From positions 124,001 to 188,000 of the forward strand of contig NZ_PJRN01000004.1 of NCBI RefSeq assembly GCF_002930105.1: DNA of 64,000 nucleotides. Direction: 5' to 3'. This DNA is from Billgrantia saliphila (GTDB taxonomy: Bacteria > Pseudomonadota > Gammaproteobacteria > Pseudomonadales > Halomonadaceae). The notes beneath the pieces are model-generated. The model did not search any database. It was not told where the DNA came from and was given only the letters and a program-made list of their open reading frames with translations. Positions 14,630 through 64,000 of the stretch are shown here, one piece after another. Numbering within the stretch: the stretch's first letter is position 1; every line of letters starts with the position of its first letter. The translations under genes and the position numbers were made by a program.

Positions 14630-14638
14630 AATTTATAA

Positions 14639-14673: not shown

Positions 14674-14686
14674 CGAAGCCCGAAGC

Positions 14687-15943: not shown

Positions 15944-15949
15944 GGAAGC

Positions 15950-16025
15950 TGGTGGGTCGTGTAGGATTCGAACCTACGACCAATTGGTTAAAAGCCAACT
16001 GCTCTACCAACTGAGCTAACGACCC
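15950..16025 (-). tRNA. tRNA-Lys (UUU), copy 2 of the tandem
   Basis: 76 nt including encoded CCA. The acceptor GGGTCGT pairs with ACGACCC; D-arm, anticodon loop CTTTTAA (anticodon TTT) and T-arm GGTTCGAATCC are all intact. It is identical in sequence to the copy 92 bp upstream. Confidence 0.97.
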
Positions 16026-16041
16026 GATCACAGGCCCGGAA

Positions 16042-16117
16042 TGGTGGGTCGTGTAGGATTCGAACCTACGACCAATTGGTTAAAAGCCAACTGCTCTACC
16101 AACTGAGCTAACGACCC
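16042..16117 (-). tRNA. tRNA-Lys (UUU), copy 1 of the tandem
   Basis: Identical to the copy at 15950-16025, with CCA encoded, anticodon TTT and all arms intact. The two are separated by 16 bp and probably processed from one transcript. The spacer sequence gives no sign of an inserted element or a duplicated attachment site. Confidence 0.97.
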
Positions 16118-16204
16118 TTCCGAACGGGTGCAGATATTACTGATCGCCCCCTTGGCTGGCAAGGACTTTTTGACTTTAGGCGACCATTCCGTCCCAGGGA
16201 AGCA

Positions 16205-16335
16205 CTGGACAAATCGGCGAGCGAAATGAAGCGCTAGGCGCGAGGAGCGCAAGGCCTGAAGCATATGGGGTATATGTGACGGGCCTGAGCACCACAGCAA
16301 CACAGCGATTCGCTCGCACAGACATTTGTGAGCGT
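16205..16335. other. Structured intergenic element, candidate ncRNA or dispersed repeat
   Basis: Several inverted repeats are nested here. The outer stem GCGAGCGAA (16217-16225) pairs with TTCGCTCGC (16309-16317). Inside are GCGC/GCGC (around 16231-16250), AGGCC (about 16252) with GGCCT (about 16281), and a CATAT...ATATG hairpin (16262-16276). A competing hairpin of CGCTCGCACA (16311-16320) with TGTGAGCG (16327-16334) would exclude the outer stem. It lies just after rluB. No reading frame here looks coding. I cannot name the element. Confidence 0.45.
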
Positions 16336-16339
16336 TTAT

Positions 16340-17197
16340 CTAGCGGCCCTTGGGATTCCTGGGCTTGCGCATCGCCTGCACCGGGCGACGCTTGTTCTTG
16401 TCGCGGCTCCAGCGGTTCTTCTCGTCGGGGGTCAGCTCGGGCACCTTGCGTGGCGCCAGGCCGGCGGAGAGGGCCAGATCGTCGATCTCGTCCTGTGAAA
16501 GCTCCACCCACTCCCCGGCCTTGGCCCGCTTGTCGAGGAAGATATTGCCGTAGCGCACCCGCTTGAGCCGACTGACGGTGAGGCCCTGGGATTCCCACAG
16601 CCGGCGAACCTCGCGGTTGCGTCCCTCCATGATCACCACGTGAAACCAGGTATTGATGCCTTCGCCACCGAACTCCTGCACGTCGGTAAAACGCGCCGGA
16701 CCGTCATCCAGCATCACGCCCTCGACCATGGCCTTCACGTGCTCCTTGCGCACCTCTCCCATCACGCGCACGGCGTATTCGCGTTCGATCTGGGTGGAGG
16801 GGTGCATCAGCCGGTTGGCCAGCTCGCCGTCGGTGGTGAACAGCAGCAGCCCGCTGGTATTGATATCCAACCGGCCAATGGCAATCCAGCGTTCACCCTT
16901 CAGGCGCGGCAGACGCTCGAACACGGTGCGCCGTCCTTCCGGGTCCTTGCGTGTACACAGCTCGCCTTCCGGCTTGTTGTACATGATCACGCGACGGGGC
17001 GTTTCCTCGGCCCCGCGCAGGGTCACCGGGCGATCGTCGAAGGTCACCTTGTCGCGCATCTCGATGCGATCGCCGAGCGTGGCGACCTTGCCGTTGACCT
17101 TGATGCGGCCGGCTTCGATAGCCGTTTCCATCTCGCGACGCGAACCCAGCCCGGCACGGGCCAGGACCTTCTGCAGCTTTTCTGAATGGCTCGTCAT
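16340..17197 (-). CDS. rluB: 23S rRNA pseudouridine(2605) synthase
   Basis: Pseudouridine synthase of the RsuA/RluB family. An N-terminal S4 RNA-binding domain ([25 protein letters not shown]) is followed by the catalytic domain with Asp in [17 protein letters not shown], and the family block [15 protein letters not shown]. 285 aa; a basic tail of Lys/Arg residues follows the fold, as in other RluB proteins. The ATG overlaps the scpB stop by 4 bp. RluB downstream of scpAB is a common gammaproteobacterial arrangement. Confidence 0.95.
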
Positions 17198-18099
17198 GTG
17201 TTGTCGGGCTTCTCATCATCGGTGGATTCCGCCCCCGCTCCGCCGTCATCGTCGACGCTGGTGCGGGCACGTTCGGCCAGGCGCGCTTCGAGATCGGCGA
17301 AGCTCAACCCTGGCCTGTCGGACGCCTTCCCGGCGTGTGTCGCGTCGGCCGTCCCGGCCGTCGTCTCGCTAGCACTCTTTTCCCTTCCCGCTTCCGCGGC
17401 AACCTCGCCCGCAGCCGCAGGTTCGTTTTGCTCCCCCGCGTCCCAGGCCGAGGCGCCGAGTTCCTCGACATTCGTCTCTTCGTCCTCTTCGCCCGCCTCG
17501 TCGGCCTGGGCCAGCAAGCGGTTCGGCGGCGGCGGCGCCTCGTCTTCGAATATCGGCTCCGCCATTCCCTTGAGTTCATGCATGGGCGGCAATTCATCCA
17601 GTGTCTTCAGGCCGAAGTCGTCGAGAAACTGGCGCGTGGTGGCATAGACCGACGGGCGGCCCGGCACGTCGCGCTGTCCGACCACGCGAATCCAGCCACG
17701 TTCGGCCAGCGTACGCATGATCGAGCTGCTCACCGCCACCCCGCGCACCTCCTCGATATCGCCACGGGTCACCGGTTGACGATAGGCGATCAGCGCCAGG
17801 GTCTCCAGCAGGGCGCGAGAGTAGCGCTGTGGACGCTCGTCCCACAAACGCGAGATCCACGGCGAGAGCCGTGAGCGAATGCGCAGCTGGTAACCCGAAG
17901 CCGTCTCGAGCAGTTCCAAGGCGCCGCGCTCATGTCGTGCCGCGACCCGCTCCAGCGCTTCCCTCAAGTGGCGACGCTGCGGCCGCTCATGGTCGTCGAA
18001 CAGGCCCTCGAGGCGTTCCAGCGAGAGCGGCTCGGCCGCCGCCAGCAGCGCCGCCTCGAGAATATCGTCGAGGCTGTCGGGCAGTTCCATGGCAGTCAT
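17194..18099 (-). CDS. scpB: Segregation and condensation protein B
   Basis: Kleisin-associated winged-helix protein of the SMC-ScpAB chromosome condensation complex. The fold ends around residue 185 ([21 protein letters not shown] ... [23 protein letters not shown] ... [18 protein letters not shown]). About 110 residues follow that are acidic and Ala-rich ([21 protein letters not shown]), low in complexity and probably disordered. It has ATGA overlaps at both ends, with scpA upstream and rluB downstream. Confidence 0.94.
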
Positions 18100-19046
18100 G
18101 CTCGATCGTTCCCCTGCGACAGGTCCGCCGCTCCCGCATCTTCGGCGAAGGGGCTTTCGACATCGTATTCTTCGCCTTCCAGCATCTCGTCTTCTTTGGT
18201 GTCGCGCGGCGTTCGGGCGCGCACGTGGATCGGCGACAGAGGCGCGTTCTGCACGATCTCGATCATCGCCTCCTTGGCCAGCTCGAGGATGGCCATGAAT
18301 GTGACGATCACGCCGGCGCGTCCCTCCTCCAGGGTGAACAGCGCCTCGAACGGCGTGTAGTGCTCGTGATTCAAGCGCTCCATGATCGCCAGCATGCGCT
18401 CTCGGGTCGAGAGCACCTCACGGCCGACATGGTGGGCCTGGTTGAGCTCGGCCCGGCGCAGGATGCCGGCGAGCGCCCCTAACAGCTCGTCGAGTTCGAC
18501 ATCGGGATGAATCACCCGCGCCTGCAGCGGCGGCAGCGCGGCCCGGGCCGGAAACCAGTCGCGCCCTACCCGGGGGAGTTCCGCCAGCGCCTCGGCAGCA
18601 CTCTTGAGCTGCTCGTACTCCTGCAAGCGACGGATCAGCTCGGCGCGGGGATCCTCCTCGTCGTCCTCGTTCCCCTCCTTCGGTGGACGCGGCAGCAGCG
18701 TACGCGACTTGATCTCGGCCAGCATGGCGGCCATCAACAGGTATTCGCCGGCCAGCTCGATCTCCATCGCTTTCATCAGCTCGACGTACTCGATGTACTG
18801 CCGGGTGATGGCGGCCACGTCGATGGCGAGAATATCCAGGTTCTGACGACGGATCAGGTAGAGCAGAAGATCGAGCGGCCCCTCGAAGGCCTCGAGAAAG
18901 ATCCGCAGCGCCTCCGGCGGGATGTAGAGATCCTCGGGGAGTTCAGTGATCGGCTCGTCGAACAGCCTGGCGAGCGCCTCCGTCCGGACGGCGGCGTCAG
19001 GCGTAGCATGCTGCTCGGGGGCAGCCGTATGGGGCGTCTCGCTCAC
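18096..19046 (-). CDS. scpA: Segregation and condensation protein A (kleisin)
   Basis: Kleisin subunit that bridges the SMC heads. The family core starts at LYIPPEALRIFLEAFEGPLDLLLYLIRRQNLDIL and continues through LMKAMEIELAGEYLLMAAMLAEIKSRTLLP. No ATG fits: an open frame continues to 19184 but that part is antisense to the bactofilin gene. A GTG at 19046 with GGGAGG eleven bases before it gives 316 aa and a plausible N-terminus, so I chose it; this is the uncertain point. Stop overlaps the scpB start by 4 bp. Confidence 0.9.
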   Translation of the reverse strand: MSETPHTAAPEQHATPDAAVRTEALARLFDEPITELPEDLYIPPEALRIFLEAFEGPLDLLLYLIRRQNLDILAIDVAAITRQYIEYVELMKAMEIELAGEYLLMAAMLAEIKSRTLLPRPPKEGNEDDEEDPRAELIRRLQEYEQLKSAAEALAELPRVGRDWFPARAALPPLQARVIHPDVELDELLGALAGILRRAELNQAHHVGREVLSTRERMLAIMERLNHEHYTPFEALFTLEEGRAGVIVTFMAILELAKEAMIEIVQNAPLSPIHVRARTPRDTKEDEMLEGEEYDVESPFAEDAGAADLSQGNDRA

Positions 19047-19129
19047 GCGGGGGATGGCCTCCCGGCTGGACTCGTCTGAAGATCGATCACGCAGTCTACC
19101 AAGAGCGTGAGGGAGAGGGTAAGTCCGGT

Positions 19130-19681
19130 TCAGCCAACCGTCAGCCGAACGACTTCCCCTTGGAGGCTCGCGCCGGCAAGACACTCCAGGCGCCTGGCTT
19201 CAATGACACCCCGTACACGAGCCCGCGACCGTAGCGTGATCTTGTCGCCGGCCTTGAGCATTCCCGCCACCTGCCCATCGACGCTGATCTCGCGCCCTTC
19301 CAGATATGACGCCACTCTTCCGTTCACGGTCACCGTGACGTGATGGTCCTTGGCGATAACGGCTCCTTCTATACTGCCCTTGACCATCACCGGCTCATTG
19401 GCAATGAGCTTGCCCGTCACTCGCGTAGCCACACCGATACGACTCCCTTCGTCGCCACTCCGGGCAACGGATATCCCCCCGGCGCTTTCCGTCCCGATAA
19501 TCGGTTCACTCATCGTCGCGGCCGGCAATAGGCCTTGCTGGGACATGCAGGCAACCGATGCAGCGCTCCCCGGTGTAGCGGAACCCGCGGCGCGGCTTTT
19601 CAACTTGCGCCGCCCTCCATCCCAGATGATCAAGGTCATGACAACCACGCCAAGAAAGATAAGCCAAGTCTGAATACCCAT
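19130..19681 (-). CDS. Bactofilin with N-terminal membrane anchor
   Basis: 183 aa. A single membrane segment (TWLIFLGVVVMTLIIW, residues 4-20) is followed by a linker and a beta-helical bactofilin domain (residues 80-170), recognisable by its regular six-residue hydrophobic rungs: RVTGKLIANEPVMVKGSIEGAVI, VASYLEGREISVDGQVAGML, ARVRGVIEARRLECLAG. Bactofilins polymerise into cytoskeletal filaments that place other proteins. A GGAG ribosome site is present. It ends 83 bp before the scpA start and is divergent from a second bactofilin. Confidence 0.85.
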   Translation of the reverse strand: MGIQTWLIFLGVVVMTLIIWDGGRRKLKSRAAGSATPGSAASVACMSQQGLLPAATMSEPIIGTESAGGISVARSGDEGSRIGVATRVTGKLIANEPVMVKGSIEGAVIAKDHHVTVTVNGRVASYLEGREISVDGQVAGMLKAGDKITLRSRARVRGVIEARRLECLAGASLQGEVVRLTVG

Positions 19682-51402: not shown

Positions 51403-53604
51403 TCATTCCGCTTCACCCTTGGGCGCGTCGGCGGCTTCGCCATCGCCCCGCGAGTGCAATTGCGGCAACCTGACCTGGGCCAGCGACTGGAGGCTGAATT
51501 CCGGCGCCACCTCGGACCAGGCAATCACCGGCAGGTCCAGCTCGTGTCGTTTTACCCACTGCTGCAGCACCGGACGCACGTCGGCGGAAACCACCACTAC
51601 CGGCGATACATCGTTGTCCAGCGCCTCCAGGCGCTGCTGAAACCAGCGGTTCAAGGCGCGCGACAGCGATGCCGGTACGCTGCCACTCCTGGCGGGGCCA
51701 TCGGCACTGCGCTGCGTCGAGCGAATAGCCTCTTCGAGCTGACGAGTCACCACCCAGGCCGGCAATACCCGATCGGCCCGAGCGAAGCGATGACAGATCT
51801 GGCGCGACAGGGCGGCCCGAATCCGCTCAGTCAGCCGCGGCACGTTCGCTTCCTGGGGTCCCCAGGTCACCACCGCCTCGAGGATGGTGCGCAGCGCGCG
51901 CAGCGGAATACCCTCGTTCACCAGGCGGCGCAGTATGTCCGAAATCTTCTGCAGCGAAACCACGCGCACCGCCTCACCCACCAGCTCCGCATAGTCCTGC
52001 TCCATGCGCGACAACAGCGTCCGGGTCTCCTGAATACCGACGAACTCCCCGGCATAACGAGCCAGGGTGCGTTCCAGGCACAGGCACAGCACCTGGTCGT
52101 CCCGGCGATAGCCGATCCCGGCCTCATCCAGGCGCTCGACCTCCTGCACAGCCACCCAGCGCCCCGAGTGCCGACCCAACGGCGATGGATGCTCGACGGC
52201 CTCGACCTCCAGCAGCTCCAGATGCACAGGATCGTCGTCGAGCAGCACTCGCCCGGGGGGAAGCTCTCCCTGCATGATCGGGACTTCATCGAGTTCGATG
52301 GCGAAATGGGCGGTTTCCAGCGACGCATCGGCGCGCAGGCCGACGCTCGGCATCTCGATCCCCAGGCTCGCCCCGGCACGGCGACGCGCATCGTCGAGTT
52401 CCCAGCGCAGGGCATCGAGAGAGAGAGCCTCAGCCAGCGAGGTCGCCAGGCACAGCACCACACGATGCGATTCACCTGGCTCCGGCGCCGTGCCGGCGTC
52501 CGGCGCGGGCTCCTGGTCAGCCGGCGTTGCCGCCTCCCTGGCGGGGGCGGCGCTTGCCGGCATGGGCGCGGGGGACGACAGCTCCCCTCCGGTATCAACC
52601 TGCGCCAAGAGCCTGCGCTCCCGGCGACGTATCACGTAGGCCGCGAAGCCCAGCCCGGCCGCCAAGGTGAGGAAAACGCCGGGAGCGAACCCCGGGATGA
52701 AGGCAGCGAAGAGCAGGATGACGGCGGTCAGCCCCAGCGCCCGGGAACTCCTGCCGAGCTGGCCGACGATCTCGCTGCCCAGGTCACCGCTGTGGCCGGA
52801 GTTCGAGCTGACCCGCGTCACCACGGTACCGGCGCCGACGGCGATCAGCAGCGCCGGGATCTGGGCCACGAGTCCGTCGCCGACCGTCAGCAGCGAATAG
52901 GTATTCACCGCCTCGCCGAACGACATGCCCCGCTTGACCATGCCGATCGACAGGCCGCCGATCAGGTTGACGCAAAGGATCACCAGTCCGGCGATGGCAT
53001 CGCCCTTGACGAACTTCATCGCACCGTCCATCGCCCCGTAGAGCTGGCTCTCCTGCTCCAGGCGCTGACGCCGGTTGCGCGCCTCTCCCTGCTCGATATC
53101 TCCGTTGCGCAGGTCGTTGTCGATGCTCATCTGCTTGCCCGGCATCGCATCAAGAATGAAGCGGGCAGCCACTTCCGCGACCCGCTCGGCCCCTTTGGTG
53201 ATTACTAGGAACTGAGCCACGGTGATGATCAGAAACACCACCAGGCCAATCACCACTTCGCCGGCAATGACGAAATTACCGAACGCCGACACGATCTGCC
53301 CGGCATCGCCCTCGAGCAGGATCAGGCGCGTGGTGGTGATCGACAGCGCCAGGCGGAACAACGTGGCCAGCAGGATGATCGGCGGCAGTGAGGAGTACTC
53401 GACCGGGTGCGAGATGTAGAACGCCACGACGAGGATCAGCAGGCTGAAGCCGATGTTGATGCCGATCAGCGCATCCACCAGCGCCGTCGGCAGCGGGATG
53501 ATCATCATGACCACTGCCAGCACGATGAACAGCGCGATAACCACGTCGCTGCGCTGAGCGGCCCGCTGGGCAACGAGGTTGAGCTTCGACAGGGCCACGC
53601 TCAT
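51403..53604 (-). CDS. sctV: T3SS major export apparatus protein SctV
   Basis: 733 aa (most SctV are about 690-700). FlhA/YscV/HrcV family: N-terminal membrane domain with LIGINIGFSLLILVVAFYISHPVEYSSLPPIILLATLFRLALSITTTRLIL, the FHIPEP-like loop region VAEVAARFILDAMPGKQMSIDNDL, and the C-terminal nonameric ring domain after about residue 345. A long linker rich in Ala/Pro/Glu (residues 330-385) explains the extra length. ATGA overlap with the upstream TPR gene. Confidence 0.96.
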   Translation of the reverse strand: MSVALSKLNLVAQRAAQRSDVVIALFIVLAVVMMIIPLPTALVDALIGINIGFSLLILVVAFYISHPVEYSSLPPIILLATLFRLALSITTTRLILLEGDAGQIVSAFGNFVIAGEVVIGLVVFLIITVAQFLVITKGAERVAEVAARFILDAMPGKQMSIDNDLRNGDIEQGEARNRRQRLEQESQLYGAMDGAMKFVKGDAIAGLVILCVNLIGGLSIGMVKRGMSFGEAVNTYSLLTVGDGLVAQIPALLIAVGAGTVVTRVSSNSGHSGDLGSEIVGQLGRSSRALGLTAVILLFAAFIPGFAPGVFLTLAAGLGFAAYVIRRRERRLLAQVDTGGELSSPAPMPASAAPAREAATPADQEPAPDAGTAPEPGESHRVVLCLATSLAEALSLDALRWELDDARRRAGASLGIEMPSVGLRADASLETAHFAIELDEVPIMQGELPPGRVLLDDDPVHLELLEVEAVEHPSPLGRHSGRWVAVQEVERLDEAGIGYRRDDQVLCLCLERTLARYAGEFVGIQETRTLLSRMEQDYAELVGEAVRVVSLQKISDILRRLVNEGIPLRALRTILEAVVTWGPQEANVPRLTERIRAALSRQICHRFARADRVLPAWVVTRQLEEAIRSTQRSADGPARSGSVPASLSRALNRWFQQRLEALDNDVSPVVVVSADVRPVLQQWVKRHELDLPVIAWSEVAPEFSLQSLAQVRLPQLHSRGDGEAADAPKGEAE

Positions 53605-53933
53605 GCCTCCCTCCGCTGCTGCAGGTAAACGCGGAAAAGACGTCGGGCCTCATCCTTCTGCCCAGCCGCCCACAGCACCCGGCTCTGCAGCAATATCAGC
53701 CCGGACGAGGCTCCCTGTAGACGCTCGAGGCGCTCGATCGCCTCGAGCGCCCTCGGCGTGTCGCCTACCGCGATGAAGGCCCGGGTCAGCGTGTGCAGGA
53801 TGCCGGCATGATCGGGGGCGATATGCGCCGCGATCAGCAATAGCACCAGACCACGCTTCGTTTCGCCGCTCTTGAGATAAAGATGCCCCATCATGTGCAT
53901 CAGCTCCGCCGCTCCCTGGTCACCATCCCTCAT
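53601..53933 (-). CDS. T3SS TPR protein (Y4yS-like)
   Basis: 110 aa with two or three TPR-like helical hairpins (LMHMMGHLYLKSGETKRGLVLLLIAAHIAPDHAGILHTL, GDTPRALEAIERLERLQ, VLWAAGQKDEARRLFRVYL), no signal peptide. Position next to sctV matches Y4yS of rhizobial systems; SctG/SctY-type chaperones are alternatives. ATGA overlaps on both sides. Confidence 0.72.
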   Translation of the reverse strand: MRDGDQGAAELMHMMGHLYLKSGETKRGLVLLLIAAHIAPDHAGILHTLTRAFIAVGDTPRALEAIERLERLQGASSGLILLQSRVLWAAGQKDEARRLFRVYLQQRREA

Positions 53934-54328
53934 CGCTCGAACTCCTCGGCCTCGGCACGGCGTTCCGCCCACTCCAGGCGCTGCGCGATCTCCTCGTTGA
54001 GCAGTTGCGCTGCCATCTCGACGACCTCGGTCTGCGTGTCCATCTCGGGCAACACCGCATCGACCACGTGCTGCAGCAGCCCGATGCTGCGTTCATCGGC
54101 ATAAAGCGAAGGATCGCCGGCAGCGGGCTGCGCCATGCGCTCGATTTGCTCACGCAGCGTGCCGCCCTCCTGGCGACGCGCCTGGCTGCCCTCCACCGCT
54201 CTGGCGAAATCGGCTTGTCGCTCCGGATCGACGGGCTTGCTGCCGCCGGCTTCGCCGACATGGGGCACCGTCCCTGCGCTGGTGCGAAGACGATGATCGT
54301 CATGAACACGATCGGCGGTAACTCTCAT
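53930..54328 (-). CDS. Hypothetical T3SS-operon protein, 132 aa
   Basis: Not recognised. Hydrophilic and helical, with no signal peptide; a disordered, basic first third (residues 1-50) and a Glu/Gln-rich second half (LREQIERMAQPAAGD, LLQHVVDAVLPEMDTQTEVVEMAAQLLNEEIAQRLEWAERRAEAEEFER). It lies between sctD and the TPR gene and has a strong ribosome site (GGAGG, 7 bp before the ATG). It might be a chaperone, gatekeeper or regulator; nothing in the sequence decides. Confidence 0.65.
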   Translation of the reverse strand: MRVTADRVHDDHRLRTSAGTVPHVGEAGGSKPVDPERQADFARAVEGSQARRQEGGTLREQIERMAQPAAGDPSLYADERSIGLLQHVVDAVLPEMDTQTEVVEMAAQLLNEEIAQRLEWAERRAEAEEFER

Positions 54329-54365: not shown

Positions 54366-55604
54366 CTACAGCGTCAGGGAGAATTCATCACTGCCACGGC
54401 GTACCGTGACGCGGTTGTCGGCGATCTCGGCCAGCACCCAGCCCTCCTGCAGGGCGGCACCGGGGTAGAGGCGTTCCCCCCGGGGGCCAACGACATAAGG
54501 ATTCTCACCGAACCACACCGCCTGAAACTGCAGGGCTGGCGAATCGGTCGACAGCTGCGGACGGGCTTCGCTGATCAGCAACTGGCTACCGCCATAGTGC
54601 TGATCGAACCAGAGCTGCACGTCGCGCCACTCGTCATAGCGTTCGGGGGGGAACTCACCGTCGACGACCAGATGATTACCGGCATCTCGGACCTGCAGCC
54701 CCTCCAACCCGACCTCGGCGAGCCGCTGGACCAATGCCTCGCCGGGTGGCGTATCGACGACCATCAGCGAGCGGGCCGCCTCGGCTGCCTGTGGATGCAG
54801 CATGCCCGTGGAATGGAGCGCGCTGGCAGAGATGTTGGCCCCTGCCGTGCCGACGCCAACGAGCTGATAGATACCAACGATCGCCAGGGTCGTGCAGAGT
54901 GCCGTCACCGCGGCGCTGCGCCTGGCCAAAACATGCGCCGGACCCTGGCGCGCCTGAGCCAGGCGTTGGCGCCAGTGCGCCGGGATCGGCGCCCGACGCC
55001 ATTGATGGGAGACGAAGCTTCCCAACGGTGCGAACCAGGCACCGAGGCGCTGACTCACCGGTGCCAGGGCTTGCCCAGTGCGTGACCACAACCACACCAG
55101 TCTGCCTAGAAGAGTCAATGCGATGGGTAGAGCGAAGCGCTGCAGGGCGGCTTGCAAAGGAGCAAGCCGACGATTCAGGGCTGCCCTTACTACGGGCACG
55201 CTTGCCTGCACACGACGTTGAAGCGTGCCCACCCCTCGCAGGGCGCTCTGCAGAGCTGGCGGAAGCAACAGCTCAGGGCGGGTAAGCGTGAGCTTCACTT
55301 CGCCAATGGCAAGGGTGACCGGTATAGGCGTACGCCAACCGGTACCTTGCGCCAGCGGTTTACCGTTGGCCTCGACAGCGCCACCGACCGCCTCGATGGC
55401 CACCATGCGCGCGTGAAAGCGCAGAATGACATGCTCACCGACAACGTCGGCATCGCTCAGTATTACGTCGCAGCGGGTCGCGGAGCCGATACGGCAGACC
55501 GGCTGCTCGAGCGGCACGGACACTCCCGCATGAAGGCCGCTCCTCACTTCCAGCGTGGAGAACACCTCGGTCGTCGGCATCAAGAACGAAGTCACGGAAG
55601 CCAT
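54366..55604 (-). CDS. sctD: T3SS inner-membrane ring protein SctD
   Basis: 412 aa. N-terminal FHA-like domain (FSTLEVRSGLHAGVSVPLEQPVCRIGSATRCDVILSD...), a long basic cytoplasmic linker, one membrane segment (about 225-250, AAVTALCTTLAIVGIYQLVG) and a periplasmic part with BON-like folds (LVQRLAEVGLEGLQVRDAGNHLVVDGEFP). It is the SctD ring that joins the secretin side to SctJ. ATG 55604 follows AGGTGG; a GTG at 55613 and ATG 55580 are alternatives. Confidence 0.9.
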   Translation of the reverse strand: MASVTSFLMPTTEVFSTLEVRSGLHAGVSVPLEQPVCRIGSATRCDVILSDADVVGEHVILRFHARMVAIEAVGGAVEANGKPLAQGTGWRTPIPVTLAIGEVKLTLTRPELLLPPALQSALRGVGTLQRRVQASVPVVRAALNRRLAPLQAALQRFALPIALTLLGRLVWLWSRTGQALAPVSQRLGAWFAPLGSFVSHQWRRAPIPAHWRQRLAQARQGPAHVLARRSAAVTALCTTLAIVGIYQLVGVGTAGANISASALHSTGMLHPQAAEAARSLMVVDTPPGEALVQRLAEVGLEGLQVRDAGNHLVVDGEFPPERYDEWRDVQLWFDQHYGGSQLLISEARPQLSTDSPALQFQAVWFGENPYVVGPRGERLYPGAALQEGWVLAEIADNRVTVRRGSDEFSLTL

Positions 55605-55697
55605 GGACGCCACCTGTCATGAAATACCATCAAGCCCGAGCCCCCATCTCGAACATGACAGCAGCCAAGATACGCAGCCTGGATTGCGAAAGCCTGG

Positions 55698-55735: not shown

Positions 55736-55933
55736 TCAGTTATTGGGACGTGCCGCCCTGGCCGTATCGACCTCGGTGTTTCCCTCGGTCTTGACCTTAC
55801 TGACCTCCATCGATTTCTTGGCGGCTTGATCGAAGACGTCTTTTAGCTGCTGTACATCGATGCCACCGCCGCCGCCAGCACCTGAAACACCATCAGCAGC
55901 CTTTTTCTTTTCCTTGATCTTGAAGATCGCCAT
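55736..55933 (-). CDS. Small T3SS-operon leader protein, 65 aa, unknown
   Basis: MAIFKIKEKKKAADG, a Gly-rich stretch (AGGGGG), then a helix (VQQLKDVFDQAAKKSMEVSK) and a polar tail ending ARPNN. No signal peptide. Very strong ribosome site (AAAAAGGAG, 7 bp before the ATG) and a strong hairpin after it, which is the usual design of an abundantly made subunit. It is the first gene of the sctD operon. Needle or pilin subunit (SctF/NopA-like role) is an inference; the sequence does not match a family I can name. Confidence 0.68.
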   Translation of the reverse strand: MAIFKIKEKKKAADGVSGAGGGGGIDVQQLKDVFDQAAKKSMEVSKVKTEGNTEVDTARAARPNN

Positions 55934-56399: not shown

Positions 56400-57968
56400 C
56401 TATTGCTTAGTCTCACCAAGCAGGCAACCCTGAACACAGGGTCCACAGCAGGTGACCGACTCGCCACGATCCAAGTGATTCTTCATCTCGGGCGCTGAGA
56501 GACAAGTAATTACGATATATGTGTCATGAGCAGCACGCACCCTAAGGCCATCGGGCCAGAGGATGCGACCATCCCTTCCGATGCACCCACTACAGATTAC
56601 TTTGCCCCGGCGGAACGAAGACAAATTGATATCCATGTTGGGAAGCTGCATGAAATGAACGTAGTAGCCAGCCGGAAATTTTCCTCGCCGCGATATGTCG
56701 TTCAACGCCGGGATATCGCCAAGGCGATAGACGTGAGCACTTTCTTTATGCCGAACTGGTGGCATCCTAGAAAGAGGGTCTTTCCGGCTGGCTCTTTTGT
56801 CAGGGCCTGAAAGCTGGCGAGTTTTTCTCTGAACCAAGGCAAAGAAATTGGAATAATCTTTTCCTAACAGTCTCAAGCCCCTATTCCGCCTAATGGAATC
56901 TTTCTCTCTACGCAGGCTTTCCCTCAATCCATACGCTTCCAGAAATGCAGGCTGGGCATATACCCCCTGAGGAGCTTTAGCGGTAGCTATGGGTTCCAGC
57001 CCTTCACCAGATCCGATCTTGGCAAGGATGATTGGGTCAACATGCGAAGTCATGTCGACCGCACCGGGATATTGGTAGCCTATGTTCAAAGGATACTGCT
57101 CCCAGTCAAAGACGGTGTAGGGGGCTTTCCTGATGGCGCCCGGCTCTCCGTAGTCGAAAGTCAGCACATAGCCCTCATCGAGAGCCATTCCTAGCTCGCG
57201 CATCCAATGCATGGCCCTGACATTGACCGTCAACCGCTCGCCCTCTGGCTGTGCAGCGATCGGGAACACCTTGTTCAGGTCCATGAGCACGGCGGCGAGA
57301 GCCGCACTCGGCGATCGCTCCTCTTCGCTGAAGTTCCCATGCGAATCGAGGGTGACGTAAATTTCCTTGAGCTCCCCACGCCGAATCACGGCACGGTGCA
57401 CCGGAAAGGCATCAGGGAGTTCGTTGGAGAGAAACACGCCTCGGACCCTCCGCAACGGCAAACTGTCTGCGCCTGCGTGGAGCCAGCGAACCCGTGGCCG
57501 CTCCGCCAGGATGCCCTGTTGACGCACAATCAAGGCCCGGCTGCGCTCGACAATCGTATAGCGAAGTGCGTCATGAAGCTCGATATGCTCGACCTGCAAG
57601 GTTTCGATGATATCGCGAGCCAGCGTCCCATTACCCGCCCCCATCTCGACCACATCGAAGCGCCGGGGACGGCCCATCGCCGTATGCATATCGACCAGCG
57701 CTTTCGCAAGCGTACGGCCAAAGTAACGGCTTCGCTCCGGTGCCGTGACAAAATCGTCGTCCCTCGCATTGCCGATCGAGACGACTCCCGAATTGTAATA
57801 TCCCCCTTCACCATCGAGCCCATAGAGAGAGCGGTCCATGAACTCGGCAAAGGAAATCCCCCCCTTCGCCCTGACATACTCGATCAACACACCGACAAAG
57901 CGAGGATCGAGCCGTAACCCCAGTGCCGGATATGGATTCGCTTCACTCTTGGCAATAGCAGAATGCAT
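56400..57968 (-). CDS. MidA-family SAM-dependent methyltransferase with extra C-terminal domain
   Basis: 522 aa. Residues 1-about 400 are a class I SAM methyltransferase of the MidA/NDUFAF7 family (COG1565): FDVVEMGAGNGTLARDII (motif I), FLSNELPDAFPVH and LTFDYGEPG. Human/eukaryotic relatives methylate arginine in complex I. The last about 105 residues are not part of MidA; they hold FPAGYYVH, SGCIGRDGRILWPD, YIVITCLSA and a Cys-rich end (CCGPCVQGC). The same domain occurs in the upstream giant protein. ATG 57968 (or TTG 57971); GGGAAG lies 8-9 bp before. 30 bp after the giant gene, same strand. Confidence 0.85.
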   Translation of the reverse strand: MHSAIAKSEANPYPALGLRLDPRFVGVLIEYVRAKGGISFAEFMDRSLYGLDGEGGYYNSGVVSIGNARDDDFVTAPERSRYFGRTLAKALVDMHTAMGRPRRFDVVEMGAGNGTLARDIIETLQVEHIELHDALRYTIVERSRALIVRQQGILAERPRVRWLHAGADSLPLRRVRGVFLSNELPDAFPVHRAVIRRGELKEIYVTLDSHGNFSEEERSPSAALAAVLMDLNKVFPIAAQPEGERLTVNVRAMHWMRELGMALDEGYVLTFDYGEPGAIRKAPYTVFDWEQYPLNIGYQYPGAVDMTSHVDPIILAKIGSGEGLEPIATAKAPQGVYAQPAFLEAYGLRESLRREKDSIRRNRGLRLLGKDYSNFFALVQRKTRQLSGPDKRASRKDPLSRMPPVRHKESAHVYRLGDIPALNDISRRGKFPAGYYVHFMQLPNMDINLSSFRRGKVICSGCIGRDGRILWPDGLRVRAAHDTYIVITCLSAPEMKNHLDRGESVTCCGPCVQGCLLGETKQ

Positions 57969-57998
57969 CAACTGGGCTTCCCGTCGTTCTCGATAGCG

Positions 57999-60900
57999 CT
58001 AAGCCATCTCCCGCTTTGGTAGATAAACCCGGTCTCCTGGCTGCAGGGCGCTGGGATCACCAATATGGCCGAGGTTAAGCTCCACCACTTCCGCGACATC
58101 GTGTCCCCGGCTGATGGCGATGCTTCCCAGCGACAGGTGTGACTCGACCTCGACCCAGTCATGCCCCTGCCCCTCGAGAGCCGGGTTGGTGCGCCTGTTC
58201 TCTGCTACAGCGTAAGTGTACTGTCGCGTCGAAGCAGGTGTCGGGGATGGAGAGGAATCTGGTGATGGCGTAGATTCCAGCGATGGTGAAGACTCCGCCG
58301 ATGACGAAGGCTCCGGCGACGGAAAGAATTCCGGCGATGGAGAAGAGTCCGGCGACGGTGAGGGAGGTTGAGTTTCGGCAGGCTCCTGCTCGGGCTCTTG
58401 TTCCTCTTCCTCGACCGGCTCCTCAGTCTCCAGTCGCTGACTACGTAGCCAGCTTTCGATGGCGGCGGGGATTGCCATACTTAAAAACAGAGTACTACCG
58501 ACGCCTCTCCATATTTTTTGTTCATCGTTCGCCACCCATAAAGGGGCTGTATCTTCCGTATGAAGTCTGCCGCGCCAGTCAGTTCGGTTCCCCTCCGCTA
58601 GCCAATCGAATCCATGCATGTGAAAGTTCAATGGCTTGAACTTCAATCCATAGATGTACGCAAGAAAGCTGGCCTGCATGGCAGTGGCCGCTGCCAGAGT
58701 GCTTCCTAGCAGGATCGAACCATCCTGAGAAAAAAATTGATTAAGAGACTCCCCCATGGTAAGGGCGGACAGTCCTGTAACAGGGAGGCCAGCTAAATGC
58801 TGTGCAAGCCAAGTCCTGCCTTTTGGACTTAACCAGGCTCTGTCAGGATCGCGATTCAGGGAGAGCCAGCTTCTTTCTGGTGCAAAAACAGCCTTGCTAT
58901 TGGGCCACTTTGATGCAATGACATCGCGCCACACGTTACGCATGGCGATGGAGTCATCGCGAAGGCCTTTCAAGCCATAATAGCCCAAAAAAACTTGGGG
59001 GATAGTCGCGCTAGCATAGGACAATGCAAGCCAATGATTACCACTGGCGAGGGCATTGGCTGCCATCACGGCAGTAGCACTACCGGCCCAGGACGGAGTC
59101 AGAATGCCGTAGAAATAAGAACCATTGGTCGTAGCGCTCTGAATCCACGCCTTTCGCAGGGGACTCGACGTTGGATCAATGTTGCGTAGGCCAGCCCCCA
59201 GCTTGGCCGCCGCACTCATACCTAGCGTCAAGTTGGCAATCATGAAGCCTGCAAGCCCGGCATTGTCGGCGACCATCAACCACGGCGAATCATTCGAAAA
59301 GAGATGGGGGAAAACGCCCCCGCTAGTAAGAAACTGCCAGGATACGGCGACATTCAGCAGATGGGTCAGTGATATTCCACCCAGGAATGCACGCCCCGCC
59401 CCCAGGCGAGGATCGAGTGCTTTCAAAAACAGCGCCTCCTCCCCCACTGCTTCCTTGAGACGTTTTTGATATTCATTGGCTGCCTCCCGAATGGCAAATG
59501 CTTGCTCGGATTGAGTCCAGCCCTGTTGAGCCGAGCCTTCCTGGGTCGGAAGATTTTTCAGCAGTTGATAGCCAAGCCAGAATTCTTCGGTCGCATTGCT
59601 GGCTGCCAACAAACTATCATTGTTTAGGTTAAAGGCTTTCCTGGCCGCGTAAATACGGCTTACCCCCCAGTTCAGCAACTCCCCAGTAATACTTTCTCCC
59701 GTTTCGATTCTTTCTCTCTTTGAATCAAACTTAAGCTTATAGCTGGAATCACTGAAGATCCCCAGACCGCGAGTCGCAGCCGCCACACTGGAAATCACCA
59801 TGGCAGGGGCCAGTACATCCAGGCGATTCAAAGGCTCGGCGACCAAAGGTACATGCCGATGCAGTTCGGCCGCCCCCAGGAACAGGCCGGCCGAAATACC
59901 GGCGGCCCAGCTCCCTTGCCGCTCTGATGGGGACATGGAGGAAACTAACCGAGACAACCAGCCTAGTGGCTTGGGTTCACTCAGAGTATTCGCCTCCCGG
60001 ACTTGAGGTGTTGTTCCCTTAGGCGATAAGGGGTCACGCACCATCTGTACCCGGACGTTTTGCGGATCAATCTCAGACAAGATACTACGGGCATCAGGGC
60101 TTAATGCTCTCAACAGTGCACCGTGAATATTATCGTCGAGGGGGATGCTGTTCAGTATCTCTGCACTGCTTTTCTTTGCCGCCAGGTTGTATGCCGACAG
60201 CCTGGATGCCTGCAGGACGAAGAGCTCGCTGCTGGATCTCCCTAGCACTGGGCGCGTATCAATATTCTTTCTATTTCCATTGTCTATCCCGTGAACCAAC
60301 ACGACCTTTGCGTTTCCTGAGCCATCCCTGACCAAGGAAATCGTACCTTGGCGCGCAGCGTTCTCCAATGCCGTCGGTGTCGCATGCTGCTGCAACAACG
60401 AGGTGCTGATCCGATCGAGTTGAGGCCTCAGGAGAGCATCCCACTGGGAATGCGTGAATGCCCCTTGTTGGCTGTCGCTCATCGCTCCGATCTGATCGGC
60501 CGTCAATATCCGAATCCGCCCCCCTAGCGCTCGGATCTGGTCATCGGTCAATGACTGAATGTGGCTATCGGTCAATGACTCAAGTTGAGCATCGTTTAAC
60601 GCCCCAACCTGATCTTCCGTCAGATGCGGCACCTGTTCAGGCCTTAGCATTCCGGACAGCTTGTCCACCTGTGCCAGATGGGAGGGGGGAATGAACACAA
60701 TAGCCTCCCCTGGTAATTTCCCGATGTCGAGAGTCGTTGCCTCTGGCCTCGTGGGAACATTCCAGCCACTGGCACGATCACTGTCATACTCGGCAATATA
60801 TAACCGCCCCTGGTCATGCCTGAAACGGTCTCGTATGGCACCCGCCGACAACTCGGATACGACAATGTAAACATCCTCGTTATACTTTACATCCTTCGCA

Positions 60901-63900
60901 TGAGAACTTCCGTCACTTTTTACACTCTCGATCCGAATCACTGCCTGATTTTCGTTGTTAGTAGTGACGGCAATATTCTCTACTGACCCAGTACGGCGGG
61001 CTGGCCAGACAATTTCCCCATCGCCTTGTATTGTTCCGCTCAACGGTATCGTTCCATCGGTCAAGACAAATTCACCAGGCTTTCTCTGAGAGCGAATAAT
61101 GTGGACATGATATCCTGCTGGCAACTCCCCATTGGTGATTGCTCGGCTTATCGCCTCGATGTGATTCTGGCGCGCATGCCCAGGATGATAAAGCCACGCA
61201 CGACCCTCAGTTGAAGGAATCGCTTGACTGGTGTGCGATTTCGTCGAGTTCGGTGAGCCCCCCAGCCACGGAATTAGAAGATCGAAGCGCACAGCCCCCT
61301 CATCCCCTAGCCGGGAGTTCTGCTGGACTAAATACCAAACGAAATCCCGGAACTTTGTGAGAGTATTACCCTTTGTACTAGTGTCAGGGATGTTCTGGTA
61401 AGCGGCCGATACTTCCTCCCCTGGAAATGAGCGTGTTGTCAATGGGAGCAATGCCCGCTGTTCGCTGGGCAGCCTCTCCAGTTGCCAGGAGCGTAGCGCA
61501 TCTCCTTGGTCTTCGGTCAGCTTGCTCAGCTGCCTTGTCGACAGCGAGGCGAATTTCTCCGGCGCTAGCTTGCCAAGCACTTGAGGATCCAGCGCTGCAA
61601 CTTGTTCGGGTGTGAACGCTGCGAGCTGATCATTCGACAAAGCGTTCAGTTGTGAGGCACGAACAGTCCTCATCTGTGCAAGACTAAAACGTGCCAGTTG
61701 GAAAAATGAAAAATCTGAAAATTGCGTCGACGTCAACCGAGCCACACTCTGTGGATCGGTCGACGCGACTGCCAATTCTTGGCGAGAGATCCGCGGGAAG
61801 GCAGCTTCTGGCATATGGCCAGGGAAAGGGCCAGCCAGACTATCGGGAACATGAGGGGGATGGTTGGCCGTGGTAGGCGTAGGGGACTCCCCTCCTAAGC
61901 TGGCCTGCAACGCTGCGGTATCGATGGCCTCCGAGCCGGCACGCATGTGTGCCGTCGGGTAGAGCCTCGTCGTCGTGGAAAACTCCCCGGACGTACTCCA
62001 AGGGGTAGAAGTGCGGTTGAGTTCCGGTAAGGCGGGGGGCGCTTGCTCCCTCGCCCCCCTCTGATTCGGCCACGAGGCCCGCAACCCCCGGTAACCCATC
62101 CCGGTACCATAGATGCCGCTGGCAACGCCTAGCCAAGCGTCGGTTCGCTCAAGGCTCGACATCTCGCCCCCGTGCGCCGCGATGTTATAAACGGAGTAGC
62201 CCAATAGCGGCGTACCTATCCCCATGGCACCGACATCCGACCAGCGGGCCGCCGCGAAGACCCCACCCGGCTGGGAGAGCATCTGCGATGCCTGGCGATA
62301 CTCCAAACTATAATTAGCGTGCCTTGGGTTCAGTCTGTTGGCATTGAACGCGCCAATGCTGGTACGTGCCGCCACCGTTCCCTCGACTCCGCGCGCCGTC
62401 ATTCCGGCGAGACGTAGACCGCTCGATGCCATCGGCAGCACAGACGTCGCCAGCATGGCGCCTTGCATCAGGCCTTCCGTGCTGGCCCAGGACCGGCCAT
62501 GCCGTTGCATGTTGGCGAGGTTGCCGACACTGCGCGCAGCAAAGTAGGCACCGCCCGCAACGGCTAGCGGTGCAGCGACCGGTGCCAAGACCGGAATGAA
62601 GGAAGCAAGGGTGGCAATGCTGGTACCGATGCCAATCACCGGGTCGAGCCACTCTTCGGTAAAGCTCTTCTCACGAGCCTGCTCCCACTCGTACTGAATG
62701 TCGCCGCTGATATTAGCGATCTCGGCGAAGTTCTCCGGTACATAGACCTGGCCATTCTCGGACAGATAATTGTTGTACTGGAAGTCCGCAAAGTTTCGAT
62801 AGCGGCTGCCGCTGTCGTCGATGAGCCAGGGATGGGTATCGTCTTCGCTCATACGGAACAGGGCTGTGTCGTAAGTGGAGCCACTCTCCTGATAGAGAAT
62901 CGGGATGATCTCAACCTCGTCTCCCTTATCGCCAAGCTCACGGATTTGGTCGGCCACCGGGTCGATCAGCTCGGCGTCGTCCGTCCCGAGCACCGCGCTC
63001 AGATTTGCGTCCAGCTCCTCGTCGATGGTGATGACACGCTCCTCCGGCAGGTCGTCCAACCCCGCCTCGACACGCGCCTCATCGGCCTCCTGATCCCTGA
63101 ATGCCGTAGCAATCGCCGGCCAGTTGTCCGGATCGAGGCGATGCGCCTCCTCCTGTCCCAGCAGGTGCGCGTTGAACCGACTGGCCCTCTCGATGTTTAG
63201 TCGGTGGTCAGCGTTCTCATCCAAGGCCTCTAGGAGAGCCTTTGCCTTATCTTCCAGGAGGTCCAGTTCATCGGCTAGATCCAACTCCGGATGCTGTTCC
63301 TTCCACTCTTCCGGCGCCTTCTCCATGAATGAAACACCGGCCCGTATGATGCCCAGCTGAGTGAGGATACGCGCCTCGCGACTGTCGGAGAGGTGTTGCT
63401 GGGCCTCAAGATACCCTCCCTCCAGTTCGAGGTAGTCATTCTCCCACTGCCAGGATTCTGCGGGCCCAGGCCCTTCCTGTGCTGGCCCGGCCGAGGTCCC
63501 GCCGTCGAGCAGTTGCCAGGTCGACGGCTGGGAAGCACGATAGGCTTCCATTCGTGCGTGCCACTCACCCGCCTTGAGAGAGTCACGTTGCCTCTCAAGC
63601 AACACCAACTCCTCCTGCGCCGCCGCCACTTCGGGATGCACCCAGCGCATCCCCTCTCCCATCTCTTCATCAATGATCGGCACCAGCACCGGATCCACGT
63701 CATCGGGCAGGGAGCCGGTGAGCTTCTCCGTCCCGCCGAGGCCATACTCCTCGACGGTATCGTCATAGGATGTCTGAGCCTCCTCTACGGCCGTCCTGGC
63801 CTCCTCCAGGCTGCCTTCGACGATCCAGTCCGCCCACTGCCGATCGAGCTGCTGCTCTGCCTCGGTACGCTCCATCCACTCCGGAGCTTCATCGGGGGTA

Positions 63901-64000
63901 TAGGTCAGTTCATCTTCCAGTGTGTAGTTTTCATAGACGATAGTCAGATGTAGCTGGCCGTCCTCAACAGTGACAGTGACGTCGTTCTCACTGAACCTCC
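57999..64000 (-). CDS. Giant repeat protein with LysM-like C-terminus, N-terminal end outside the window
   Basis: At least 2,000 aa: the frame is open to the window edge and reads as protein past the first in-window ATG (63875), so the true start lies outside. Order seen: Glu-rich helical N-terminal region (about 63000-64000); hydrophobic segments at about 62500-62660; Leu/Gln repeat array 1 (61446-61744); the domain shared with the methyltransferase (about 60800-61170); repeat array 2 (60412-60657); several hydrophobic helices (58450-60000); a Ser/Pro/Glu linker (58236-58370); and a C-terminal LysM-like domain (58002-58165, AISRGHDVAEVVELN ... DPSALQPGDRVYLP). No known enzyme motif. T3SS effector, surface protein or polymorphic toxin are open options. 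GC looks lower than in the T3SS genes. Confidence 0.85.
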   Translation of the reverse strand, partial: RFSENDVTVTVEDGQLHLTIVYENYTLEDELTYTPDEAPEWMERTEAEQQLDRQWADWIVEGSLEEARTAVEEAQTSYDDTVEEYGLGGTEKLTGSLPDDVDPVLVPIIDEEMGEGMRWVHPEVAAAQEELVLLERQRDSLKAGEWHARMEAYRASQPSTWQLLDGGTSAGPAQEGPGPAESWQWENDYLELEGGYLEAQQHLSDSREARILTQLGIIRAGVSFMEKAPEEWKEQHPELDLADELDLLEDKAKALLEALDENADHRLNIERASRFNAHLLGQEEAHRLDPDNWPAIATAFRDQEADEARVEAGLDDLPEERVITIDEELDANLSAVLGTDDAELIDPVADQIRELGDKGDEVEIIPILYQESGSTYDTALFRMSEDDTHPWLIDDSGSRYRNFADFQYNNYLSENGQVYVPENFAEIANISGDIQYEWEQAREKSFTEEWLDPVIGIGTSIATLASFIPVLAPVAAPLAVAGGAYFAARSVGNLANMQRHGRSWASTEGLMQGAMLATSVLPMASSGLRLAGMTARGVEGTVAARTSIGAFNANRLNPRHANYSLEYRQASQMLSQPGGVFAAARWSDVGAMGIGTPLLGYSVYNIAAHGGEMSSLERTDAWLGVASGIYGTGMGYRGLRASWPNQRGAREQAPPALPELNRTSTPWSTSGEFSTTTRLYPTAHMRAGSEAIDTAALQASLGGESPTPTTANHPPHVPDSLAGPFPGHMPEAAFPRISRQELAVASTDPQSVARLTSTQFSDFSFFQLARFSLAQMRTVRASQLNALSNDQLAAFTPEQVAALDPQVLGKLAPEKFASLSTRQLSKLTEDQGDALRSWQLERLPSEQRALLPLTTRSFPGEEVSAAYQNIPDTSTKGNTLTKFRDFVWYLVQQNSRLGDEGAVRFDLLIPWLGGSPNSTKSHTSQAIPSTEGRAWLYHPGHARQNHIEAISRAITNGELPAGYHVHIIRSQRKPGEFVLTDGTIPLSGTIQGDGEIVWPARRTGSVENIAVTTNNENQAVIRIESVKSDGSSHAKDVKYNEDVYIVVSELSAGAIRDRFRHDQGRLYIAEYDSDRASGWNVPTRPEATTLDIGKLPGEAIVFIPPSHLAQVDKLSGMLRPEQVPHLTEDQVGALNDAQLESLTDSHIQSLTDDQIRALGGRIRILTADQIGAMSDSQQGAFTHSQWDALLRPQLDRISTSLLQQHATPTALENAARQGTISLVRDGSGNAKVVLVHGIDNGNRKNIDTRPVLGRSSSELFVLQASRLSAYNLAAKKSSAEILNSIPLDDNIHGALLRALSPDARSILSEIDPQNVRVQMVRDPLSPKGTTPQVREANTLSEPKPLGWLSRLVSSMSPSERQGSWAAGISAGLFLGAAELHRHVPLVAEPLNRLDVLAPAMVISSVAAATRGLGIFSDSSYKLKFDSKRERIETGESITGELLNWGVSRIYAARKAFNLNNDSLLAASNATEEFWLGYQLLKNLPTQEGSAQQGWTQSEQAFAIREAANEYQKRLKEAVGEEALFLKALDPRLGAGRAFLGGISLTHLLNVAVSWQFLTSGGVFPHLFSNDSPWLMVADNAGLAGFMIANLTLGMSAAAKLGAGLRNIDPTSSPLRKAWIQSATTNGSYFYGILTPSWAGSATAVMAANALASGNHWLALSYASATIPQVFLGYYGLKGLRDDSIAMRNVWRDVIASKWPNSKAVFAPERSWLSLNRDPDRAWLSPKGRTWLAQHLAGLPVTGLSALTMGESLNQFFSQDGSILLGSTLAAATAMQASFLAYIYGLKFKPLNFHMHGFDWLAEGNRTDWRGRLHTEDTAPLWVANDEQKIWRGVGSTLFLSMAIPAAIESWLRSQRLETEEPVEEEEQEPEQEPAETQPPSPSPDSSPSPEFFPSPEPSSSAESSPSLESTPSPDSSPSPTPASTRQYTYAVAENRRTNPALEGQGHDWVEVESHLSLGSIAISRGHDVAEVVELNLGHIGDPSALQPGDRVYLPKREMA
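58236..58370 (-). repeat. Low-complexity Ser/Pro/Glu-coding repeats in the giant gene
   Basis: Irregular repeats of about 24 bp (variants of TCCGGCGATGGAGAAGAG on the plus strand) code for SPSPD/SPSPE/SSP units. A flexible linker between the membrane-rich region and the LysM-like end is likely. Length may vary between strains. Confidence 0.75.
60412..60657 (-). repeat. Leu/Gln helical repeat array 2 in the giant gene
   Basis: About seven or eight units of 10-11 residues of the type LTxDQIxAL (LRPEQVPHL, LTEDQVGAL, LNDAQLESL, LTDSHIQSL, LTDDQIRAL, LTADQIGAM, FTHSQWDAL). Probably a stacked helical solenoid or coil. Confidence 0.85.
61446..61744 (-). repeat. Leu/Gln helical repeat array 1 in the giant gene
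   Basis: About nine units of 10-11 residues of the same kind, more diverged (LTSTQFSDF, VRASQLNAL, LSNDQLAAF, FTPEQVAAL, LAPEKFASL, LSTRQLSKL, LTEDQGDAL). It is separated from array 2 by the domain shared with the methyltransferase. Confidence 0.8.

What the first reader, a model, noticed from the sequence alone, without database searches (positions are those of the whole stretch)
56400..61170. A shared domain links a MidA-like methyltransferase and a giant repeat protein
The last about 105 residues of the methyltransferase and a middle segment of the giant protein (DNA about 60800-61170) have the same series of motifs: G-x-PAGY-x-VH, then SG-x-I-x2-DG-x-I-x-WP, then D-x-YIV followed by LSA. 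The two genes are adjacent, same strand, 30 bp apart. Sharing of a domain between neighbours suggests they act on a common target or bind each other. I know of no family name for this domain.
Basis: seen in the sequence. Interest (0 to 1): 0.8.

Follow-up and report, generated by a model that had tools for sequence, protein, structure and literature searches.

The report
Methyltransferase carrying a giant protein's module
In some salt-loving Halomonas bacteria, an enzyme that adds methyl groups carries a small unnamed protein module also found in giant proteins encoded beside a protein-injection machine, and the enzyme travels between strains together with one type of giant, which suggests it works as that giant's partner.

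Summary
The C-terminal ~100 residues of the MidA-like methyltransferase (PF02636) and a ~140-residue segment of the adjacent 3093-residue giant are homologous: profile-profile probability 99.8, score 157 against at most 17 in 40 column shuffles. No Pfam, NCBIfam or PHROG family matches the segment.

The setting explains more than the pair does. The window is Halomonas/Billgrantia; both genes sit just upstream of a type III secretion (T3SS) operon. The module occurs in 13 of 275 Halomonadaceae genomes, all SctD-positive, always in giants except for four methyltransferase tails. Those tails form one clade: most simply one fusion. PF02636 occurs in 4 of 90 genus genomes, exactly these four. On the T3SS tree the carriers are scattered (4 changes; one clade rejected, p-AU 2e-8); on the tree of the giant's central region they form one clade (100/100). 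The enzyme thus travels with one giant type across T3SS lineages, while the giant's C-terminal part and module copy are exchanged independently.

Best reading: a companion enzyme of a T3SS-locus giant, docked by its module to a partner. Matched binding between the two copies is not supported. Secretion, activity and target are untested.

The parts
56445..56741 (-). Shared module, compact copy: residues 411-509 of the methyltransferase (tail)
   Evidence: Profile hits E 3e-29 and 7e-6 in two pieces around the missing segment (profile includes this copy); hhalign 99.8 against giant copies only; dN/dS 0.20-0.34 in six pairs
56400..57971 (-). MidA/NDUFAF7-like methyltransferase (PF02636) with C-terminal module, 523 aa
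   Evidence: Pfam PF02636 151.3 bits against cut-off 23.3, residues 87-326; PDB relatives 4f3n, 1zkd, 5ztz
57999..64000 (-). Giant protein, C-terminal 2000 of 3093 residues (gene runs on to 67280 in extended coordinates, locus L002)
   Evidence: Open frame 3100 aa; DUF4781 PF16013 30.8 bits against cut-off 27.9; ALTTAQ_rpt PF20080 47.1 bits against cut-off 26.4
60786..61211 (-). Shared module, long copy: residues 2024-2165 of the giant
57999..58208 (-). Conserved last 70 residues of the giant, LysM-like
   Evidence: 44-94% identical in 15 of 15 other loci compared; LysM Pfam hits in 6 of 9 relatives' C-terminal segments scanned, only one above cut-off, none in the window copy
54366..55613 (-). 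SctD (T3SS inner ring), first large gene of the T3SS operon downstream
   Evidence: Yop-YscD_cpl, Yop-YscD_ppl_3rd, Y4YQ_C
51403..53604 (-). SctV (T3SS export gate)
   Evidence: FHIPEP 670 bits
42248..51524 (-). Further T3SS genes examined: secretin SctC, SctJ, SctL, SctN, SctQ-like and others
   Evidence: Secretin, YscJ_FliF, T3SS_SCTL, ATP-synt_ab/T3SS_ATPase_C, FliMN_C

Best explanation
The shared segment is an autonomous, probably mostly beta module of about 100-140 residues that belongs to the giant proteins encoded beside a Halomonas T3SS. A COG1565 (MidA/NDUFAF7-type) methyltransferase gained a compact copy of it, most simply once, by fusion, next to one giant type ('type A', defined by residues 706-1760 with DUF4781). 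The methyltransferase has since travelled with that giant type into different T3SS loci (shown by the trees). Most likely (inferred) it is a dedicated companion enzyme: made together with the giant, held by its module to a partner that the giants' modules also recognise, and methylating an arginine or other side chain on the giant or on that partner. Not shown: methyltransferase activity, its substrate, whether enzyme or giant is secreted, and what the module binds.
For: Homology of the two segments. The four tails are one clade (100/99). PF02636 in exactly 4 of 90 genus genomes, the four with the tail, so this is not a housekeeping MidA (G149 and G954 are the Billgrantia and H. maura records). 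MTase present in 4 of 4 type A loci and in 0 of the 12 other loci, which hold 13 module-bearing giants. T3SS tree of 15 loci needs 4 label changes (one clade p-AU 1.8e-8) against one clade on the giant central-region tree of 22 rows. SAM-binding and NE-x2-DA-x-PV blocks retained. Core dN/dS 0.14-0.25 and tail 0.20-0.34 in six pairs each. Same strand, 15-159 bp apart in all four loci. Giant next upstream of sctD, or of the methyltransferase before sctD, in 13 of 13 T3SS-linked loci with the module.
Against: Tight physical linkage alone could explain co-transfer; only four carriers are known, probably from one fusion. Tail and cognate giant module do not co-vary, so no matched pairing is visible. 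The 27-codon linker's dN/dS (0.32-1.47, five computable pairs) overlaps the tail's at its low end, so the contrast is rough. Two tail rows have an unusual letter make-up in the module tree. Nothing computed here shows secretion, interaction or activity. The structure predictions were too weak to give the module's fold.
Confidence: 0.5

Rival explanations
1. The methyltransferase is itself a second T3SS-delivered effector. The module is a targeting device that sends both enzyme and giant to the same place in a eukaryotic cell.
For: Encoded between giant and T3SS operon; the module is found only in SctD-positive genomes (13 of 13); a DUF4781 protein in B. cenocepacia T3SS clusters carries an effector-like HopBF1 domain (PMC12580581, passages seen); the enzyme is optional, as effectors are.
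Against: No obvious separate N-terminal extension: the first 30 residues are as conserved as the rest of the enzyme in the three-row alignment (judged by eye). No secretion data; not testable here.
Confidence: 0.27
2. Hitch-hiking: a COG1565 gene landed beside the giant and captured a module fragment. It persists mainly because it is linked to the giant and has no joint function with it.
For: Probably one fusion, four carriers, short intergenic distance; poorly conserved end after residue 505 (11-72% identity); co-transfer expected from linkage alone.
Against: Core and tail both under purifying selection; open frame kept in four genomes that fall in four places of the T3SS tree.
Confidence: 0.18
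3. The module in both proteins is a site for a shared T3SS chaperone or sorting factor and has no role after secretion.
For: Restricted to SctD-positive genomes; the operon holds a small TPR protein at window 53601-53972 that could be a chaperone (guess).
Against: T3SS chaperone sites are typically near the N-terminus (recalled), whereas here the module is internal or C-terminal. A giant without the module stands beside a closely similar T3SS (G111, SctD 89%).
Confidence: 0.05

Closest known systems
COG1565 / MidA / NDUFAF7 methyltransferases (PF02636; PDB 4f3n, 1zkd, 5ztz)
   Same: Whole methyltransferase domain with SAM-binding glycine motif, NE-x2-DA-x-PV and YPG-x2-D-x-T-x-HV blocks.
   Different: No match to the module: the three PDB matches end by query residue 355 and the 19 plasmid matches by residue 380. 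Within this genus the family occurs only beside a type A giant.
DUF4781 giant proteins beside T3SS in Phyllobacterium and Burkholderia cenocepacia
   Same: DUF4781 region, size above 2000 aa, T3SS neighbourhood (PMC12580581 passages).
   Different: The two Phyllobacterium proteins lack the module, and the genes listed around them, from a gene table that the tool calls incomplete, include no methyltransferase. The Burkholderia protein's sequence was not looked at.
Modular type III effectors that exchange C-terminal parts ('terminal reassortment')
   Same: A conserved front part joined to exchangeable C-terminal segments.
   Different: The module-bearing giants are about 2,290-3,850 residues long with a conserved LysM-like end after the variable part. 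The precedent is known to me from recall and a search listing; I read no paper on it.

Membership tests
COG1565 / MidA-NDUFAF7 methyltransferase (PF02636) | Pfam PF02636 above curated cut-off | tested here: met
   151.3 bits against 23.3
COG1565 / MidA-NDUFAF7 methyltransferase (PF02636) | SAM-binding glycine motif and NE-x2-DA-x-P motif | tested here: met
   EMGAGNG and NELPDAFPV align to EFGAGTG and NEVLDAMPV of 4f3n; that these are the family's functional motifs is recalled
COG1565 / MidA-NDUFAF7 methyltransferase (PF02636) | Protein arginine methylation (NDUFAF7: Arg85 of NDUFS2) | not testable with these tools
   Activity reported for NDUFAF7 (PMC3829151, start of abstract in listing); nothing measured for this protein
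T3SS substrate / effector | Genetic linkage to and co-occurrence with a T3SS | tested here: met
   13 T3SS-linked loci with module-bearing giant next to the operon; all 13 module genomes have SctD; three further module-bearing giants are not linked
T3SS substrate / effector | T3SS-dependent secretion or translocation | not testable with these tools
   No experiment
DUF4781 (PF16013) | Pfam hit above cut-off in the giant | tested here: met
   27.9 bits, equal to the cut-off, in the 1999-residue fragment and 30.8 in a 666-residue fragment
ALTTAQ_rpt (PF20080) | Pfam hit above cut-off in the giant | tested here: met
   47.1 bits against 26.4, four stretches; repeats not general among module-bearing giants
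Any named domain family for the shared module | Pfam, NCBIfam or PHROG match of the module alone or in its proteins | tested here: not met
   No Pfam match to either copy alone at E 10; NCBIfam hits to the two proteins all weak and outside the module; one PHROG hit at E 0.26
Any solved fold for the shared module | Structural or profile match in PDB | tested here: inconclusive

The most novel reading that the evidence does not exclude
A NDUFAF7/MidA-type protein methyltransferase has been recruited into a T3SS effector cassette. A module taken from a giant T3SS-locus protein docks the enzyme, which methylates either the giant before or during export, or the giant's target in a eukaryotic host. 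That would be a methyltransferase activity new to T3SS biology.
Probability: 0.35. Interest if true: 0.72.

Novelty: new variant of a known kind. Interest (0 to 1): 0.5.

Why it matters
It defines an unnamed module confined, as far as sampled, to giants of Halomonadaceae that carry a T3SS. In the two searches made I saw no title devoted to the T3SS of that family (15 of 33 and 10 of 10 papers listed). It also ties a COG1565 enzyme, a family that includes the complex I assembly methyltransferase NDUFAF7, to that system. The carriers come with natural controls: closely similar T3SS loci with and without the enzyme, and one enzyme with three different giant C-terminal parts. The partner hypothesis is therefore directly testable.

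Tried and rejected
Matched docking between the two module copies: rejected as the leading idea, because tail and cognate giant copy do not co-vary and the tails form their own clade apart from the window's giant copy.

Housekeeping MidA: rejected, since PF02636 is absent from 86 of 90 genus genomes.

Module as part of the ALTTAQ repeat array: rejected as a general rule. 15 of 17 module-bearing giants have 0-1 strict repeat cores, and proline/threonine-rich stretches follow the module in several. A looser pattern was written in that script but not used. A strict pattern can miss diverged repeats.

Wider occurrence: the A2 profile found the module only in the window's own genome among 390 order genomes and 369 class genomes. 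These searches scored at most 10 and 11 first-look candidates per genome, so misses are possible. tblastn of one giant copy in plasmids gave nothing significant (best E 0.9). A scan of viral contigs gave none. Ten fetched regions searched with the 21-row profile (G111, G038, G160, G003, G1003 and five plasmid regions) gave no convincing hit; the best was E 0.015 on a 468-aa frame of G003, not followed up.

Structure: the AlphaFold model of the methyltransferase (mean pLDDT 39) was unusable. The giant segment (mean 48, module better) matched no fold. I read a beta-alpha-beta(6)-alpha-beta order from it, to be taken as provisional. The absence of a match is not evidence of a new fold.

Literature: ALTTAQ with repeat, 0 papers; DUF4781, 3; Halomonas with T3SS and effector, 33 of which 15 listed; Halomonadaceae with T3SS, 10; NDUFAF7/effector/T3SS at two of three terms gave 9,780, of which the 10 listed did not mention NDUFAF7; terminal reassortment with type III effector, 34 of which 8 listed; NDUFAF7 with MidA, 12 of which 8 listed. 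None of the listed titles or abstract starts describes this pair. I opened one paper, PMC12580581, and saw only the found passages.

Circularity: the profiles were built from 15 of the 21 copies finally known. Six giant copies not in them (G940, two of G942, two of G972, G975) matched at E 8e-52 to 7e-44. A6 holds 10 of the 17 giant copies; the H. maura giant copy and those six were not in it.

Tree caveats: 'one clade' of the tails does not by itself prove one fusion (the tool's note). In the central-region tree the program warned of long branches that meet, the stem of the carrier clade among them, and 10 of 22 rows fill under half of the columns. The carriers' own grouping rests on 80-92% identity to the window over about 1050 residues. 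In the T3SS tree the label was no more clustered than in shuffles (500 of 500 as low). The G975 SctD is a partial frame there.
Full report
OBSERVATION. The window's last two large genes, both on the minus strand, are a 523-residue methyltransferase (56400-57971) and a giant whose frame runs out of the window. With the adjoining stretch of the same contig the giant is 3093 residues long, starting at extended coordinate 67280. BLASTP aligns methyltransferase residues 416-473 with the giant (34.7 bits, E 3e-5). The local score of the tail against the giant is 76, against a maximum of 50 in 300 shuffles of the giant. Built separately, a profile of the four known methyltransferase tails and a profile of 10 of the 17 giant copies align over 99 columns with probability 99.8 and score 157.2. 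The best of 40 column-shuffled controls scored 16.6. The methyltransferase copy is a compact form, lacking about 27-30 residues in the middle; the H. maura giant copy lacks them too.

WHERE IT IS. The nearest named relatives found are Billgrantia zhangzhouensis (80% identity to the enzyme) and Halomonas maura (70%). These are the genomes G149 and G954 of the searches (identical DNA). Downstream on the same strand lies a type III secretion operon: SctD, a small TPR protein, SctV, a secretin, SctJ, SctL, SctN, an SctQ-like protein and others. In 13 T3SS-linked loci carrying the module the giant ends 614-946 bp before sctD (9 loci), or precedes the methyltransferase, which ends 751-786 bp before sctD (4 loci). 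G975's giant is split over three frames and was used only in pieces. Three further module-bearing giants (second copies in G105, G942 and G972) lie in stretches of 28-40 kb where none of the six T3SS proteins queried was found.

DISTRIBUTION. The profile A2 hits 12 of 90 genus genomes, 13 of 275 family genomes, and only the window genome itself in samples of 390 order and 369 class genomes. Every hit is a giant or a piece of one, except four methyltransferase tails. A SctD query hits 34 of 275 family genomes, including all 13 with the module; 21 have a SctD match without the module, one of them weak (G095, E 9e-5). Two of those 21 were looked at closely and have a giant without the module at the same place: G111 (five T3SS proteins 89-95% identical to the window's) and G038. 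Three more (G160, G003, G1003) showed no frame above 900 aa in the 20-kb stretch fetched; the other 16 were not looked at. One of the three tandem giants of G029 also lacks the module. The module is therefore an optional part of giants that accompany one branch of Halomonadaceae T3SS.

THE ENZYME. PF02636 matches at 151 bits. The solved relatives are 4f3n, 1zkd and an NDUFAF7 homologue, 5ztz, and the glycine and NE-x2-DA-x-PV blocks are kept. In 90 genus genomes PF02636 occurs four times, each time in this protein. This genus, as sampled, thus has no ordinary MidA. The core has dN/dS 0.14-0.25 and the tail 0.20-0.34 in six pairs each, so both are under purifying selection. The 27-codon linker between them gives 0.32-1.47 in the five pairs where a ratio could be computed, one pair having undefined dS; the ranges touch, so the contrast is rough.

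HISTORY. In a tree of all 21 copies the four tails are one clade (100/99), within a group (96/92) that also holds the H. maura, G029 and window-type giant copies; branching inside that group is open, and two tail rows have an odd letter make-up. The simplest reading is one fusion, from a giant-type module. In the concatenated SctV-SctC-SctD tree of 15 loci each carrier of the methyltransferase has non-carriers as sister: H. maura with G159, Billgrantia with G975, G147 with G155, and the window with G940 plus G111. Four changes are forced by well-supported branches, and one clade is rejected with p-AU 1.8e-8. In the tree of the giants' central region (residues 706-1760 of the window giant; 22 rows) the four carriers are one clade at 100/100. 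That tree has gappy rows and long branches, the stem of the carrier clade among those the program warns of. The carriers' grouping does not depend on them: the three others are 80-92% identical to the window over this region, and the best match in each other locus is 27-41% over the parts that align. Yet the part after residue ~1760 is exchanged even among carriers: over residues 2170-3020, 78% between window and Billgrantia, 36% between window and G147, 21% (not recognisably related) with H. maura. The module copy in the giant goes with that exchangeable part: 31% between window and G147, where the enzyme tails are 85% identical. The last 70 residues of the giant (LysM-like) are again conserved among carriers, 77-89%.

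WHAT IT MOST LIKELY DOES. Shown: homologous module, tails of one clade, confinement of the enzyme in this genus to loci with a type A giant, co-transfer of enzyme and giant across T3SS lineages, conserved enzyme motifs, selection on both domains. Inferred: the enzyme serves the giant/T3SS cassette; the module holds it to a partner that giants' modules also meet; the product is a methylated residue on the giant or on that partner. Tight linkage (15-159 bp) weakens the inference from co-transfer. That the tail does not follow the cognate giant copy speaks against specific copy-to-copy binding and leaves a shared third partner, or a tolerant interaction, as the docking options. The main rival is that the enzyme is a delivered effector in its own right; the duller rival is hitch-hiking. 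A DUF4781 protein with a HopBF1 domain in Burkholderia cenocepacia T3SS clusters (PMC12580581, passages read through find) and DUF4781 giants beside the T3SS of two Phyllobacterium plasmids fit the view that such giants are T3SS cargo; I saw no test of it.

COMPARISON. The enzyme is a member of the COG1565/PF02636 family by sequence; arginine methylation is reported for NDUFAF7 (PMC3829151, start of abstract in a listing) and untested here. The giant has DUF4781 and ALTTAQ repeats by Pfam. The module has no family in Pfam, NCBIfam or PHROGs and no fold that these weak models could find. I rate the whole a new variant of a known kind: a T3SS-locus modular giant with a companion enzyme.

Noticed in passing
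window 55736-55933 (-): A 65-aa frame between the methyltransferase and sctD is found in the same gap in all 13 loci compared (E 1e-6 or better, nearly identical in G155 and G940). No Pfam family above cut-off; a candidate needle or other small T3SS subunit (guess).
   Followed up: partly
L072/L073 (G975), stretch positions 10884-19176: The G975 giant is split over three frames, and its sctD over two; either real breaks or sequencing errors. Left as it is.
   Followed up: no
L028-L030 (G029), stretch positions 14283-41809: Three giants in tandem (2945, 2229 and 3848 aa) upstream of one T3SS; two carry the module.
   Followed up: partly
L061 (Rhodovastum atsumiense plasmid) and L076 (Pseudorhizobium flavum plasmid): Very large ALTTAQ-like repeat proteins near flagellar genes; in Rhodovastum followed by a glycosyltransferase and a class I methyltransferase gene.
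   Followed up: no
L026, L066, L070 (second giants of G105, G942, G972): Module-bearing giants of one central-region type in stretches without the T3SS proteins queried, in genomes that also have a T3SS-linked giant.
   Followed up: no
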